Source: Pulveribacter suum (GTDB lineage: Bacteria > Pseudomonadota > Gammaproteobacteria > Burkholderiales > Burkholderiaceae_C). Taken from it: a stretch of 64,000 nucleotides of DNA. The stretch is from assembly GCF_003013695.1 (NCBI RefSeq), contig NZ_CP027792.1, forward strand, positions 2,004,501 to 2,068,500. Direction: 5' to 3'. A program made the translations under genes and the position numbers. How positions within the stretch are numbered: the stretch's first letter is position 1; each line of letters starts with the position of its first letter. Below the pieces are notes generated by a model. That model saw nothing but the letters and a program-made list of their open reading frames with translations. It was not told the DNA's origin and searched no databases. Positions 8,464 through 56,796 of this stretch are shown here, in pieces.

Positions 8464-10644
8464 ATGACTGGAAATATAGAGCTTTTTTCGGCCTCAGCGC
8501 CCAAGGGGCAAGCGTTGGCAGCTAGCAAAATCATAGCGCTGCGCGAGCAGCTGAACCGCTGGGCGCATGAGTACTACGTGCAGGACGCGCCCAGCGTGCC
8601 CGATGCCGAGTACGACCGGGCCTTCCAGCAGTTGCAGGCGCTGGAGGGCGCCTATCCGGAGCTGGCCACGCCCGACTCGCCCACCCAGCGCGTGATCGGC
8701 GCGGTGATGCAGGGCCTGGCGCCCGTGCGCCACCGCGTGCCCATGCTCAGCATTCGCACCGAGACCGACACCGAGGGCAGCGGCGCCGAGACCTTCGACG
8801 CCCGCGTGCGGCGCGAACTGAAGCTCGCCCCCGAGGCGCCGCCGGTGCAATACGTGGCCGAGCCCAAGTTCGACGGCCTGGCCATGAACCTGCGCTACGA
8901 GGACGGCCGCCTGGTGCAGGCCGCCACGCGCGGCGACGGCGAGGTGGGCGAGGACGTGACGCACAACATCCGCACCATCCGCCAGATCCCTTTGAGCCTG
9001 CCCGCCGACGTGCCGCCGGTGCTGGAGGTGCGCGGCGAGGTCTATATGCGCCGGGCCGACTTCGAGCGGCTGAACGAGCGCCAGCGCGAGCGCGGCGACA
9101 AGACCTTCGTCAACCCGCGCAACGCCGCGGCCGGCGCCGTGCGCCAGCTTGACTCGGGCATCGCCGCGCAGCGACCGCTGTCGTTCTTTGCCTATGGCCT
9201 GGGCGAAGTCACGCCGGCAGACGAGGGCGGGCCCCGGTTCGCCTCGCACCACCAGGTGCTGCAGCAACTGAAAGGCTGGGGCTTTCCGGTCTCGGAGCTG
9301 GTCAGCCAGGCACAGGGCGCTCCTGAACTCATCGCGTACCACCAGCGCGTTGGCGCCCTGCGCGACGCGCTGCCCTTTGACATCGACGGCGTGGTCTACA
9401 AGGTGGACAGCCTGGCGCTGCAGCGCGAGCTGGGCTTCGTCACGCGCGAGCCGCGCTGGGCCGTGGCGCACAAGTACCCGGCGCAGGAGATGGTCACGCG
9501 CGTGGAGGGCATCGACATCCAGGTCGGGCGCACCGGCAAGCTGACGCCCGTGGCGCGGCTGGCGCCGGTCTTCGTGGGCGGCGTCACCGTCACCAACGCC
9601 ACGCTGCACAACCTGTTCGAGATTCGCAAGAAGGGCGTGCGCGTGGGCGACCAGGTCATCGTGCGCCGCGCCGGCGACGTGATCCCCGAGGTGGTGGGCA
9701 CGGTGCCGGCCGCGCTGTCGCCCGTGGCCCAGGCCCTGGCCGGCTCGGATTTGCTGGCCGATGCAGCCGCCGGCAGCGAGGGCGCCGCGCGCGCCGCGCC
9801 GCGCGTGCCCTACGTGCCCAACTTCCGCATGCCGCGCCAGTGCCCGGTGTGCGCCAGCGCCGTGGTGCGCGAAAAGGGCGAGGCCAACCACCGCTGCACG
9901 GGCGGCATCTTCTGCCCGGCCCAGGCCAAGCAGGCGCTGCTGCACTTCGCCCAGCGCCGCGCCATGGACATCGAAGGCCTGGGCGAGAAGCTGGTGGACC
10001 AGCTGGTGGAGGGCCGCATCATCCGCGCGCTGCCCGACCTGTACCGGCTGGGCCTGTCCACCCTGGCGGCGCTCGACCGCATGGCGGACAAGTCGGCGCA
10101 GAACCTGCTGGCGGCGCTGGAGCAGTCCAAGCGCACCACGCTGGCGCGCTTTTTGTTCGCCTTGGGAGTACGCCACGTGGGCGAGGCCACGGCCAAGGAG
10201 CTGGCGCGCCACTTCGGCACGCTGGACGCCGTCATGGGCGCCACGCCCGAGCAGCTGCTGCAGGTGCCCGACGTGGGCCCCATCGTGGCCGACGCCATCC
10301 ACGCTTTCTTTGCCGAGCCGCACAACCGCGAGGTGGTCGAGCAGCTGCGCGCCTGCGGGGTGACCTGGGAGGAGGGCGCGCCGCAGGGCGGCGCCGCCGT
10401 GCTGCCGCTGGCCGGCCAAACGGTGGTGCTGACCGGCACCCTGCCGACGCTCAGCCGCGAGCAGGCCCAGGCCCTGCTGGAGGCGGCCGGCGCCAAGGTG
10501 GCCGGCTCGGTCAGCAAGAAGACGAGTTACGTCGTTGCCGGCGAGGACGCGGGCAGCAAGCTCGCCAAGGCGCAGCAGCTGGGCATCGCGGTGCTGGACG
10601 AAGCCGGCCTGCACGCGCTGCTGGCCGGCCGCCCGGGCGCCTGA
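8464..10644 (+). CDS. ligA: NAD-dependent DNA ligase LigA
   Basis: Essential replicative DNA ligase that seals nicks using NAD+. From the ATG at 8464 it is 726 residues. The adenylation domain carries the catalytic lysine K135 in the motif KFDG. The OB fold is followed by a four-cysteine zinc finger (CPVC...C...C, encoded near 9841-9920), helix-hairpin-helix repeats, and a C-terminal BRCT domain (from about residue 645). Residues about 7-25 ([19 protein letters not shown]) are encoded by a palindromic element (copy 9). The conserved ligase sequence only begins after it, at [12 protein letters not shown]. The ATG at 8464 is the only ATG close upstream of the conserved region. The gap to zipA is filled by repeat R1. 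Confidence 0.96.
8483..8540 (-). repeat. Palindromic element copy 9, inside ligA
   Basis: Inverse-orientation copy: TTTTTTCGGCCTCAGCGC, loop, CAAGCGTTGGCAGCTAG, N7, ATAGCGC. It is translated in frame as the N-terminal tail of LigA (residues about 7-25), giving the shared peptide pattern ...AP..QA.AA. Confidence 0.75.
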
Positions 10645-10648
10645 GGCC

Positions 10649-11620
10649 GTGGCTCTGGTGCGCCGCACCCCCCGCGTGGGCCTGGCCCTGGGCAGCGGCT
10701 CGGCACGCGGCTGGGCGCACATCGGCGTGCTGCAGGCGCTGGACGAGGCCGGCCTGCGGCCCGACTTCGTCTGCGGCGCCTCCATCGGCGCGTTGGTGGG
10801 CGCAGCCTACGCCGCCGGCGAGCTGGAACGCTTTGCCGACTGGGTGCAGAGCCTGGGCATGCGCCAGGTCTGGGGCTTCATGGACTTCAACCTCTCGGGC
10901 GGCATGCTCAAGGGCGAAAAGCTGATCGCCTTCTGGCGCCGCAACTTTGCCGACTTCGACATCCAGGCCTCGCCCATCCCGTTTGCCGCCGTGGCCACCG
11001 ACCTGCATTCGGGCGCCGAGGTCTGGCTGCGCGAAGGCTCGATCGCCAACGCCGTGCGCGCTTCCATCGCGCTGCCCGGCCTGTTCACCCCCGTGCCGCA
11101 AGAGGGCGGGCGGCTGCTGGTGGATGGCGGCATCGTCAACCCCGTGCCGACCTCGCTGGCCCGCGCCATGGGGGCGGACATCGTCATCGGCGTGGACCTG
11201 AACTCCGACATCCTGCACCGCCACCTGCAGCCGCTGGTGCTGGCGCCGGACCCGGGCGCCACCGCGCCTCGCGAGCCGCCCGCCGCGCCCGAGGATGCCA
11301 GCGCAGCCGCAGGCGACTGGCTGGGCCGCCTGAAGTTCTGGGAAAGCGGCAGCGCCAGCAGCAGCGCCGGCGCCCCGGCCCAGCAGGTGGCGCCGCTGCC
11401 GCGCAGCCCCTCGGTGCTGGACGTGGTCATGACCAGCGTGACCATCATGCAGATCCGCATCACCCGCAGCCGCATGGCAGGCGACCCGCCGGAGGTGGTC
11501 ATCGCCCCCAGCTTGGCCCACCTGGGCGTGCTGGACTTCCACCGCGCGGCCGAAGCCATCGAGGAAGGCCGGCGCGCCGCGCAGGCCGCGCTGCCGCAAC
11601 TGCAGCGGTTTATCCAGTGA
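10649..11620 (+). CDS. Patatin-like phospholipase (RssA/YchK type)
   Basis: A 323-residue patatin-domain hydrolase, expected to cleave acyl esters of phospholipids. The Ser-Asp dyad is visible. The glycine-rich oxyanion loop is GLALGSGSARG, the nucleophile elbow is GASIG with Ser45, and Asp159 lies in VDGGIVNPVP. The C-terminal third contains an Ala/Pro-rich insertion (about 205-255) before a conserved end (MTSVTIMQIRITR). The proposed GTG start is 4 bp after the ligA stop; a second GTG at 10658 has better spacing from the upstream GAGG. Both suggest translational coupling to ligA. Substrate and biological role are unknown. Confidence 0.88.
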   Translation: MALVRRTPRVGLALGSGSARGWAHIGVLQALDEAGLRPDFVCGASIGALVGAAYAAGELERFADWVQSLGMRQVWGFMDFNLSGGMLKGEKLIAFWRRNFADFDIQASPIPFAAVATDLHSGAEVWLREGSIANAVRASIALPGLFTPVPQEGGRLLVDGGIVNPVPTSLARAMGADIVIGVDLNSDILHRHLQPLVLAPDPGATAPREPPAAPEDASAAAGDWLGRLKFWESGSASSSAGAPAQQVAPLPRSPSVLDVVMTSVTIMQIRITRSRMAGDPPEVVIAPSLAHLGVLDFHRAAEAIEEGRRAAQAALPQLQRFIQ

Positions 11621-11628
11621 ACAACCCG

Positions 11629-55742: not shown

Positions 55743-55764
55743 AGGCCGGCCACCCATCGACGGA

Positions 55765-56793
55765 ATGCCTCATCCCCTGCTTGACCCCCTGCTGCGCGGC
55801 AGCGCGCCGGTGCGCCGCCGCGCCATGGCCAAGGCCATCACGCTGCTCGAATCCACCCGCGCCGACCACCGGGCGCAGGGCGACGAACTGCTCACGGCCC
55901 TGCTGCCGCACACCGGACGCGCGCTGCGCCTGGGGATCAGCGGCGTGCCGGGCGTGGGCAAGTCCACCTTCATCGAGGCGCTGGGCCTTCATCTCATCCG
56001 CGCGCACGGCCTGAAAGTCGCCGTGCTGGCCATCGACCCGTCCTCCACCGTCTCGGGCGGCTCCATCCTGGGCGACAAGACGCGCATGGAGCAGCTGTCC
56101 GTGCACGAGCACGCCTACATCCGCCCCAGCCCCTCCGGCGGCACCCTGGGCGGCGTGGCCGAGAAGACGCGCGAGGCCATGCTGGTGTGCGAGGCGGCGG
56201 GCTACGACGTGGTCATCGTCGAGACCGTCGGCGTCGGCCAGAGCGAGACCGCGGTACACGGCATGACGGACATGTTCTGCGTGCTGCAGCTGCCCAATGC
56301 CGGCGACGACCTGCAGGCCATCAAGAAGGGCGTGATGGAGCTGGCCGACCTGGTCGTCATCAACAAGGCCGACATCGACCCGCACGCCGCCATGCGCGCG
56401 CAGGCGCAGATCACCTCCAGCCTGCGGCTGCTGATGCTGCACGGCAACCCCGACCACGACTGGAAAGCGGGAATAGTCTGGCGGCCCAAGGTCATCACCA
56501 TCAGCGCGCTGCAAAGCCAGGGCGTGGACGAGTTCTGGGCCGCCGTCAGCGAATTCCGCGCGCAGCAGACGGCCAATGGCCGCCTGGCCCTGCGGCGCGA
56601 GCGCCAGGCCCTGGCCTGGATGTGGGAGCGCATCGACGCGGGCCTGAAAACGGCCTTTCGCCAGCACCCGCAGGTCCAGGCGCTGCTGCCGCAGCTGCAG
56701 CATGACGTGGCGGCAGGGCGCATCGCGGCCGGCACTGCAGCACGAAATCTGCTCGCAGCGCAGGCGGGACAAGCGCCAGCAGCTATCAATTAA
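55765..56793 (+). CDS. meaB: Methylmalonyl-CoA mutase-associated GTPase MeaB
   Basis: A 342-residue G3E-family P-loop GTPase (formerly ArgK) that protects and reloads the cobalamin of methylmalonyl-CoA mutase. The P-loop is GVPGVGKST at 60-68, then IDPSSTVSGGSILGDKTRM, ETVGVGQSE and the base-specificity motif NKAD. The last 12 residues (QAGQAPAAIN and just before) are encoded by a palindromic element whose sequence also supplies the stop codon, so the native C-terminus was replaced or extended. Confidence 0.96.
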   Translation: MPHPLLDPLLRGSAPVRRRAMAKAITLLESTRADHRAQGDELLTALLPHTGRALRLGISGVPGVGKSTFIEALGLHLIRAHGLKVAVLAIDPSSTVSGGSILGDKTRMEQLSVHEHAYIRPSPSGGTLGGVAEKTREAMLVCEAAGYDVVIVETVGVGQSETAVHGMTDMFCVLQLPNAGDDLQAIKKGVMELADLVVINKADIDPHAAMRAQAQITSSLRLLMLHGNPDHDWKAGIVWRPKVITISALQSQGVDEFWAAVSEFRAQQTANGRLALRRERQALAWMWERIDAGLKTAFRQHPQVQALLPQLQHDVAAGRIAAGTAARNLLAAQAGQAPAAIN

Positions 56794-56796
56794 GTA
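56756..56796 (-). repeat. Palindromic element copy 12, at the 3' end of meaB
   Basis: AGCGCAGGCGGGACAAGCGCCAGCAGCTATCAATTAA. The outer GGCC/T-run part is lost. It encodes the C-terminal residues of MeaB, in the same frame as the other coding copies, and runs through the stop codon. Confidence 0.7.

What the first reader, a model, noticed from the sequence alone, without database searches (positions are those of the whole stretch)
8483..56796. Five copies sit inside genes, always the same orientation and the same reading frame
In LigA, PgeF, PrmB, DapE and MeaB the element is translated. Aligned peptides are [64 protein letters not shown] and (shorter) AGQAPAAIN. In every case GCA-GCT is read as Ala-Ala on the coding strand. 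With two orientations and three frames, five out of five is unlikely by chance and implies selection for the one frame giving a soluble Ala/Pro/Gln-rich linker without stops. This parallels the Rickettsia palindromic elements known to be inserted in frame in proteins. It would be a protein-invading repeat in a betaproteobacterium.
Basis: partly seen in the sequence, partly recalled or inferred. Interest (0 to 1): 0.88.

Follow-up and report, generated by a model that had tools for sequence, protein, structure and literature searches.

The report
Repeat with species dialects inside proteins
Hundreds of copies of one short DNA motif sit at old, shared places in this bacterium and several relatives, about a quarter of the sampled copies inside genes where they are translated into loops and tails, and related species write the motif in different dialects.

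Summary
In detail: a ~57-bp hairpin-like repeat is translated in LigA, PgeF, PrmB, DapE and MeaB, all in one orientation and frame. "Always the same frame" fails genome-wide: of 191 G000 copies sampled, 47 lie inside CDSs, 19 in one orientation and 28 in the other, though two frames dominate (15 and 18) and two often-open frames are nearly empty. The finding is also larger than stated. Sites are old: DapE, PrmB, PgeF, TruB and EarP carry the motif at the same codons in other genera. Congeners use different genome-wide dialects (AAGGGC…AGCTAT 151 times in G001, AGTCGGCGT…AGCTAT 146 in G003, both nearly private; AAGCGC…AGCTAT 344 in G000 and common in several genera), and in-gene copies of G001 and G003 follow their own dialect. 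Between close species, motif columns stay fixed while others change; near-identical copies are rare. So this does not look like an element now invading proteins; it behaves like a recognition motif maintained site by site, as DNA-uptake sequences are, overlaid on tolerant loops. Its reader is unknown. A RAYT transposase gene with a copy at its stop codon is a candidate, but three congeners lack that gene and two of them keep the motif.

The parts
8482..8540 (+). Copy in the N-terminal leader of LigA (gene about 8464-10644 +), peptide [16 protein letters not shown], frame (+,0)
   Evidence: 53.6 bits; same site in G001, L206
29995..30053 (+). Copy inside PgeF (gene about 29551-30372 +), peptide FWPPAPVHQAPAAINS, frame (+,0), length gain about 8-12 aa
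   Evidence: (65.6 bits)
37493..37551 (-). Copy inside PrmB (36826-37746 -), peptide [16 protein letters not shown], frame (+,0); the motif overlies residues that relatives without it also have
   Evidence: (55.0 bits)
38695..38753 (-). Copy inside DapE (37743-38906 -), peptide [16 protein letters not shown], frame (+,0), up to +7-8 aa; loop between two strands
   Evidence: (58.3 bits)
56743..56801 (+). Copy forming the C-terminal tail and stop of MeaB (55765-56793 +), AGQAPAAIN*
   Evidence: (63.4 bits)
55071..55129 (+). Weak sixth coding copy, in the gene called at 53046-55742 + (methylmalonyl-CoA mutase by my reading of its sequence, no call), frame (+,0); also at that site in G001
   Evidence: (24.8 bits)
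3497..3555 (-). Intergenic copy
   Evidence: (61.1 bits)
11783..11841 (-). Intergenic copy upstream of a PBP1A-family gene (11857)
   Evidence: (60.6 bits)
14392..14450 (-). Copy between convergent genes
   Evidence: (57.8 bits)
34800..34858 (-). Copy downstream of an ABC-F gene, between convergent genes
   Evidence: (62.9 bits)
45939..45997 (-). Intergenic copy
   Evidence: (56.3 bits)
50834..50892 (+). Copy between dusA (49806-50771 -) and the gene at 50898-52730 -
   Evidence: (59.6 bits)
60451..60509 (+). Copy between the gene ending at 60453 and the VOC/epimerase-like gene at 60512
   Evidence: (70.2 bits)

Best explanation
The repeat is an old, vertically inherited recognition motif (about 57 bp, hairpin-forming centre, several hundred sites per genome) of part of the Comamonadaceae. 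Something sequence-specific reads it and, by selection or molecular drive acting on each site separately, keeps the key columns (AAA, GC, GCG, GCTAT, AG) while other columns drift. Sites inside genes are treated like the others; selection on the protein only decides which frames and places are tolerated (loops, termini), so part of the loop sequence of the proteome is set by the motif's dialect. SHOWN: sites, frames, shared positions, dialects, dialect-following at the in-gene sites tested, column-wise conservation.
For: Dialects by exact pattern in 23 whole genomes with controls of 0 or 1 and by iterated profiles in five. Same codons and mostly the same length, but different dialect, in orthologues: TruB and EarP, DapE, PgeF, PrmB, other hosts shared among sampled genomes, LigA and MeaB in G001. 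At sites located by protein homology the own profile beats G000's in 15 of 19 tests, and in 7 of 7 where the partner is G001 or G003 and has the motif. Between close species columns 4, 5, 18, 40-42, 48 and 54 are unchanged in 33 copy comparisons while columns 12, 38 and 57 differ in 42-52%. GCT at the motif Ala codon in 45 of 45 (+,0) copies against 2.5-5.2% of Ala codons genome-wide (those copies were chosen by motif score, but GCTAT also recurs at the TruB site, found by protein alone, in 11 of 22 other genomes, my count). No whole-copy linkage, few near-identical copies, clustering of changes no higher in copies than in flanks.
Against: No reader protein identified. Known uptake sequences are about 10-12 bp; here the information spreads over 57 columns. 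Whole copies are on average less conserved than flanks between close species (0.836 against 0.877, lower in 23 of 33), whereas PMC2397512 reports uptake sequences as highly conserved. There is an excess of similar pairs (144 at >=0.75 against 7.5 expected) and short-range column linkage above flank baseline, so some copying is possible. PgeF, DapE and TruB show length gains, so some sites began as, or came with, insertions. A copy begins at the stop codon of the RAYT gene in 7 of 15 loci, the arrangement expected of a REP/RAYT system. The dialect tests use profiles built by iteration from the G000 profile; where a site was in a profile's sample it was left out by exact match.
Confidence: 0.45

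Rival explanations
1. REP/RAYT-type system: a Y1 tyrosine transposase (RAYT) recognises the hairpin, made the copies in the past, and its specificity sets the dialect.
For: Hairpin, several hundred copies, convergent/tandem bias and occasional in-gene copies are as described for REPs (PMC3733652 passages). One RAYT-like gene per genome in most of the family. In 7 of 15 RAYT loci (G000, G001, G008, G016, G019, G022, G023) a copy of 17-37 bits starts within 9 nt of the RAYT stop codon, always in the same orientation; in G014 a 67-bit copy lies at the 5' end.
Against: That is one shared site, and 11-22% of all genes in the five sampled genomes have a copy at the 3' end. In 6 of 15 RAYT loci no copy above 14 bits was found. 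The G000 RAYT has no match in congener G004 and only short 41%-identical matches in other proteins of G002 and G003, yet G004 has 382 and G003 146 exact dialect copies. RAYT is present in G005, G009, G011, G015, G017, G020, G021 and G022, which have 0-1 matches to the G000-type pattern (other dialects there not excluded).
Confidence: 0.22
2. Binding sites of a chromosome-organising or regulatory protein, kept by ordinary selection at each site.
For: Column-wise conservation, spread like a Poisson process (mean 4.45, variance 4.05 per 20 kb in 40 stretches), dialect shift as protein-site coevolution.
Against: Needs effective selection on several hundred degenerate sites, some inside core enzymes; no bias to replication direction (99 lagging, 92 leading, origin and terminus placed from GC skew), so not a KOPS-like polarity signal (KOPS recalled, not from a call).
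Confidence: 0.2
3. One reading: a mobile palindromic element now inserting in frame into proteins, as RPEs do.
For: Translated copies with frame filtering, extra residues in PgeF and DapE, patchy presence of the DapE insert (33 of 97 rows long, 8 changes on the tree).
Against: Same codon in many genera, mostly constant length through dialect changes, hardly any near-identical copies; no insertion within the PrmB motif.
Confidence: 0.06
4. Transcribed RNA hairpins (terminator or mRNA-stability signals) conserved as RNA.
For: Hairpin in consensus; the G001 dialect differs from G000's by a base pair of the stem on both sides; convergent intergenic regions favoured, divergent avoided.
Against: No covariation beyond shuffles in 149 distinct G000 copies; the G003 centre hardly pairs (consensus, my reading); copies inside ORFs in both orientations.
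Confidence: 0.06

Closest known systems
DNA uptake sequences (DUS) of Neisseriaceae and their dialects (PMC3630211 and PMC2397512: passages read; PMC2346458: abstract read)
   Same: Hundreds to thousands of sites, genome-wide dialects that differ between related species, intragenic sites with orientation bias, permissive regions, dyad forms between genes
   Different: 57 bp instead of about 10-12 bp; no receptor or uptake test; copies as a whole less conserved than flanks
REP sequences and RAYT transposases (PMC2817692 and PMC3733652: passages read)
   Same: Short palindromes, hundreds of copies, sometimes inside genes; here too a copy at the stop codon of a RAYT gene in 7 of 15 loci
   Different: No GTAG/CGTC tag 5' of the hairpin; RAYT orthologue missing in three congeners; 25% of sampled copies inside CDSs
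Rickettsia palindromic elements (PMC10969869: passages read; TruB of R. conorii interrupted by RPE-1 per a passage of PMC3733652)
   Same: Palindromic repeat translated in frame inside unrelated enzymes, TruB in common
   Different: 57 bp against about 150 bp, positions shared across genera, dialects, both orientations
Unnamed motif pairs GCTTAT(N)5AAGCG of Acidovorax ebreus (114 copies) and ATAGCT(N)22CAAAAG of Polaromonas naphthalenivorans (125 copies, 18 in genes) (PMC5217627: passages and section 13 read)
   Same: The A. ebreus pair has the letters and spacing of this repeat's stem; convergent bias
   Different: Listed as potential novel motifs, A. ebreus 94% intergenic; no family, dialects or shared coding sites described there. 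The Polaromonas pair was not matched to this repeat here
BRE, betaproteobacterial repeat element (PMC3110155: passages and section 14 read)
   Same: Some copies within coding sequences, occurs in Comamonadaceae
   Different: About 90 bp, 69% GC in Bordetella, at most 29 copies, partly tandem; its sequence was not compared

Membership tests
Rickettsia palindromic element type | Repeat translated in frame inside protein genes | tested here: met
Rickettsia palindromic element type | Extra residues against orthologues without the repeat | tested here: inconclusive
   Met in PgeF and DapE; TruB +4 against 4 of 11 genomes without the motif and equal to the other 7; not met within the PrmB motif
Rickettsia palindromic element type | Mobile: recent insertions, near-identical copies | tested here: not met
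   4 G000 pairs >=0.85, two of them neighbours in L063; shared sites
REP/RAYT | RAYT gene in the genome with a repeat beside it | tested here: met
   G000 and six others of 15 loci, copy at the RAYT stop codon
REP/RAYT | RAYT present in the genomes that keep the repeat | tested here: not met
   No orthologue in G004 and G003 with 382 and 146 dialect copies
REP/RAYT | GTAG-type tetranucleotide at the 5' side of the palindrome | tested here: inconclusive
   Profile: an RWAGC box exists, but 3' of the hairpin, a little beyond GCTAT
DNA uptake sequence | Genome-wide over-representation with species dialects | tested here: met
DNA uptake sequence | Sites shared at orthologous positions in core genes | tested here: met
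DNA uptake sequence | Short (about 10-12 bp) near-invariant core | tested here: not met
   information spread over the motif; only short blocks such as GCT invariant
DNA uptake sequence | Promotes uptake of DNA by competent cells | not testable with these tools
   needs a transformation assay
Structured RNA family (Rfam) | Match to a known family; covariation | tested here: not met
   (window, gathering threshold)

The most novel reading that the evidence does not exclude
The Comamonadaceae have their own sequence-specific DNA-recognition system (probably DNA uptake or self-recognition) with a long hairpin watermark whose dialect changes between congeners, and this DNA-level drive writes the amino acid sequence of loops in more than a hundred proteins per genome (extrapolated from 47 internal copies in 864 kb of 3.36 Mb), DapE, PgeF and TruB among them.
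Probability: 0.27. Interest if true: 0.9.

Novelty: new variant of a known kind. Interest (0 to 1): 0.72.

Why it matters
It is a case where a stretch of enzyme sequence is set by a genome-wide DNA motif rather than by the enzyme's function, and where the motif changes in parallel at many sites between congeners. It offers natural tests of molecular drive, of how recognition dialects shift genome-wide, and of what loops tolerate; it also warns that such residues can mislead alignments and trees.

Tried and rejected
Rfam scan of the window: nothing. Hairpin covariation: shuffles reach the observed values in 50, 491, 99, 300 and 96 of 500. Replication polarity: none. Whole-element copying and patch conversion: linkage falls to about 0 by 15-20 nt in G000, but is above the flank baseline at 1 nt (0.148 against 0.076 in G000, 0.113 against 0.036 in G019); clustering of changes z 2.2 in copies, 2.7 in flanks. 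First profiles mixed strands and gave falsely symmetric consensuses; replaced. First tree labelling used a wrong cut; corrected (31 element-like rows, 9 changes, if two long rows without the motif are left out). R1 counts in relatives suggested near-absence in G001 and G003; that was dialect. Viral contigs: 27 stretches with a match, not followed; plasmids: 3 weak partial hits.

Limits: gene calls are my own script, starts uncertain. The model R1 was built from 12 window copies, which match it by construction. One search lists 150 matches, the number scored, so it is a floor. One search used 170 of the 192 rows (22 rows under 23.7 bits dropped). G001's sample includes L113, which overlaps L206/L207, so three copies (one the PgeF copy) are counted twice. 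Pooled frame counts include the same host gene in several genomes, so the chi-square overstates independence. R1 was run on 50 of the 80 named DapE loci. The 33 comparisons come from 8 species pairs that share species. The count 45 of 54 is biased because copies were chosen by their own profile. Absence of the family in low-count genomes was tested only with G000-, G001- and G003-type patterns and R1.
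Full report
WHAT IS THERE. The DNA behind them is a ~57-bp repeat, read in the coding direction TCAAAWNGGSCTCYAGCGCYYGCCNGNCAAGCGCYRGCAGCTATCAWWTNAWTAGC, with 12 clear copies and one weak copy in the window. A covariance model from the 12 copies gave 150 matches, the number scored, in the 3.36-Mb genome and 192 at E<=1 in 864 kb sampled as the window plus 40 evenly spaced 20-kb stretches. An iterated profile gave 191 copies, 221 per Mb, roughly 740 per genome by extrapolation; exact AAGCGCNNNNAGCTAT alone occurs 344 times with no control match. 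Congener G001 is Oryzisolibacter propanilivorax (same contig coordinates).

FRAMES. With my own gene calls, 134 of 191 G000 copies are intergenic, 47 internal to CDSs, 7 near stops and 3 near starts. Internal copies by orientation and frame: (+,0) 15, (+,1) 1, (+,2) 3, (-,0) 7, (-,1) 18, (-,2) 3. Pooled over five genomes 131 of 521 copies are internal: 45, 3, 11, 24, 44, 4 in the same order. In 362 intergenic copies those frames are open in 0.58, 0.52, 0.19, 0.06, 0.51 and 0.42. So stops alone do not explain the pattern: (+,1), Ser-rich, and (-,2), Arg/Cys-containing, are often open but nearly empty, the two Ala-rich frames are full, and (-,0), whose consensus has two stops in a row, is used by copies that have lost those stops.

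WHERE IN PROTEINS. Hosts identified include LigA, PgeF, PrmB, DapE, MeaB and TruB, EarP (two sites), GlcE, ProA, PurK, MurD. DapE and PgeF are up to 7-8 and about 8-12 residues longer than relatives or solved homologues without the motif; TruB has 4 more than solved TruB 1r3f. Within the PrmB motif there is no gain, so there it overlies native residues. LigA's copy lies in a leader that is variable in the relatives seen, MeaB's supplies the tail and stop. In the DapE model (mean pLDDT 84.3) residues 55-66 form the turn between strands 49-54 and 67-74.

OLD, SHARED SITES. Copies sit at the same codon of DapE or PrmB in named genera (Acidovorax, Diaphorobacter, Giesbergeria, Ottowia, Extensimonas, Comamonas composti); DapE rows of Delftia, Limnohabitans and Hydrogenophaga lack the insert. 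On a DapE tree without the insert columns 33 of 97 rows carry the long form and 8 changes are needed, so losses or repeated gains occurred. In TruB, GCTAT stands at the motif's place in 11 of 22 other family genomes; of the 11 without it, 7 have the same length and 4 are 4 residues shorter (my count), so copies may decay in place. EarP shows GCTAT at one of its two sites in 9 of 21. Among 423 host-partner comparisons, 147 partners have the copy (net length 0 in 105) and 274 lack it, the latter largely DapE, PrmB and LigA against outgroup loci.

DIALECTS. Iterated profiles and exact patterns in 23 whole genomes show: AAGCGCNNNNAGCTAT 344 in G000, 382 in G004, 266 in G008, 352 in G014, 540 in G019, 152 in G003, 71 in G007, 26 in G006, 23 in G001, 15 in G002, 14 in G013, 12 in G018, 0-2 in the other eleven; AAGGGCNNNNAGCTAT 151 in G001, 10 in G003, at most 2 elsewhere; AGTCGGCGTN{14,16}AGCTAT 146 in G003, at most 1 elsewhere. 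G000-G004 share a genus label. In-gene copies follow: TruB reads LALTQTGEAQAAIK in G000, LALAHTESGLPAIK in G001, LALVGVDQARLAIK in G003. At sites located by protein homology the own profile beat G000's in 15 of 19 tests. The four exceptions were three G008 sites, whose dialect is close to G000's, and the EarP FIAS site of G003, which has no motif; one of the 15 (EarP FIAS of G001) also has no motif. For G001 and G003 sites with the motif it was 7 of 7, margins 5.7 to 30 bits.

HOW IT EVOLVES. Copies within a genome are diverged (mean identity 0.52-0.56), with more similar pairs than column shuffles give, but in G000 only 4 pairs at >=0.85. Column linkage fades by about 15-20 nt. Between species about 90% identical, 33 copy comparisons show columns 4, 5, 18, 40-42, 48 and 54 never changed while others change in up to half; overall copies are less conserved than flanks (0.836 against 0.877); clustering of changes is like that of flanks. 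I read this as a degenerate recognition motif maintained position by position, rather than copying or ordinary conservation.

MECHANISM. I favour site-by-site maintenance by a sequence-specific reader whose preference shifts between lineages; uptake-type drive is the closest known process (PMC3630211, PMC2397512: passages; PMC2346458: abstract). A member of the family, Verminephrobacter eiseniae, is transformable and its authors suggest sequence specificity (PMC4212676, passages). Against: length of the motif and low overall copy conservation. The strongest rival is the RAYT: one gene per genome in most of the family, with a copy starting within 9 nt of its stop codon in 7 of 15 loci. But 11-22% of all genes have a copy at the 3' end, and G002, G003 and G004 lack the orthologue while G003 and G004 keep hundreds of copies. 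A chromosome-binding protein under ordinary selection remains possible; no replication-direction bias and Poisson-like spacing were found.

KNOWN OR NEW. Eight literature searches listed no paper naming this family. The stem appears as an unexplained motif pair in Acidovorax ebreus (PMC5217627, section 13). In-frame palindromic repeats in Rickettsia and REPs in genes are known (PMC10969869, PMC3733652, passages). The combination of old shared coding sites with congener-specific dialects that rewrite the encoded residues is what seems new.

Noticed in passing
L307/L317 (G001) and L308/L316 (G004), earP: A second palindromic repeat (CCCTCTCCC...GGGAGAGGG) lies in frame in EarP next to the first repeat, adding tens of residues.
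   Followed up: partly
G002, G003, G004 whole genomes: No DapE match at E<=1e-40 in three congeners reported as 99-100% complete.
   Followed up: no
G004:C2:580122-581772: Three short PF01797 pieces over 1.6 kb, apparently a broken IS200-like gene; not the RAYT orthologue, which G004 lacks.
   Followed up: no
G019 whole genome: 20 Y1_Tnp matches, several in adjoining pieces, i.e. a multi-copy IS200/IS605-like element partly frameshifted.
   Followed up: no
L063:6101-9281: Five copies of the repeat within about 3.2 kb on one strand, two identical: local duplication.
   Followed up: no
L109 (G013) dapE: DapE segment of 48 residues at the insert site, the longest of 97 rows.
   Followed up: no
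IMG/VR contigs L341-L367: 27 stretches of viral contigs hold an exact match to the core pattern; whether phage or host flank was not checked.
   Followed up: no
intergenic copies of five genomes: Copies avoid divergent intergenic regions (G000: 8 of 132 copies against 95 of 434 regions) and in tandem regions lie more often opposite to the genes (136 against 92 pooled).
   Followed up: partly
L277 2073-2131 and RAYT loci L278, L279, L282, L284, L287, L292: A copy starts within 9 nt of the RAYT stop codon, same orientation, in 7 of 15 RAYT loci.
   Followed up: partly
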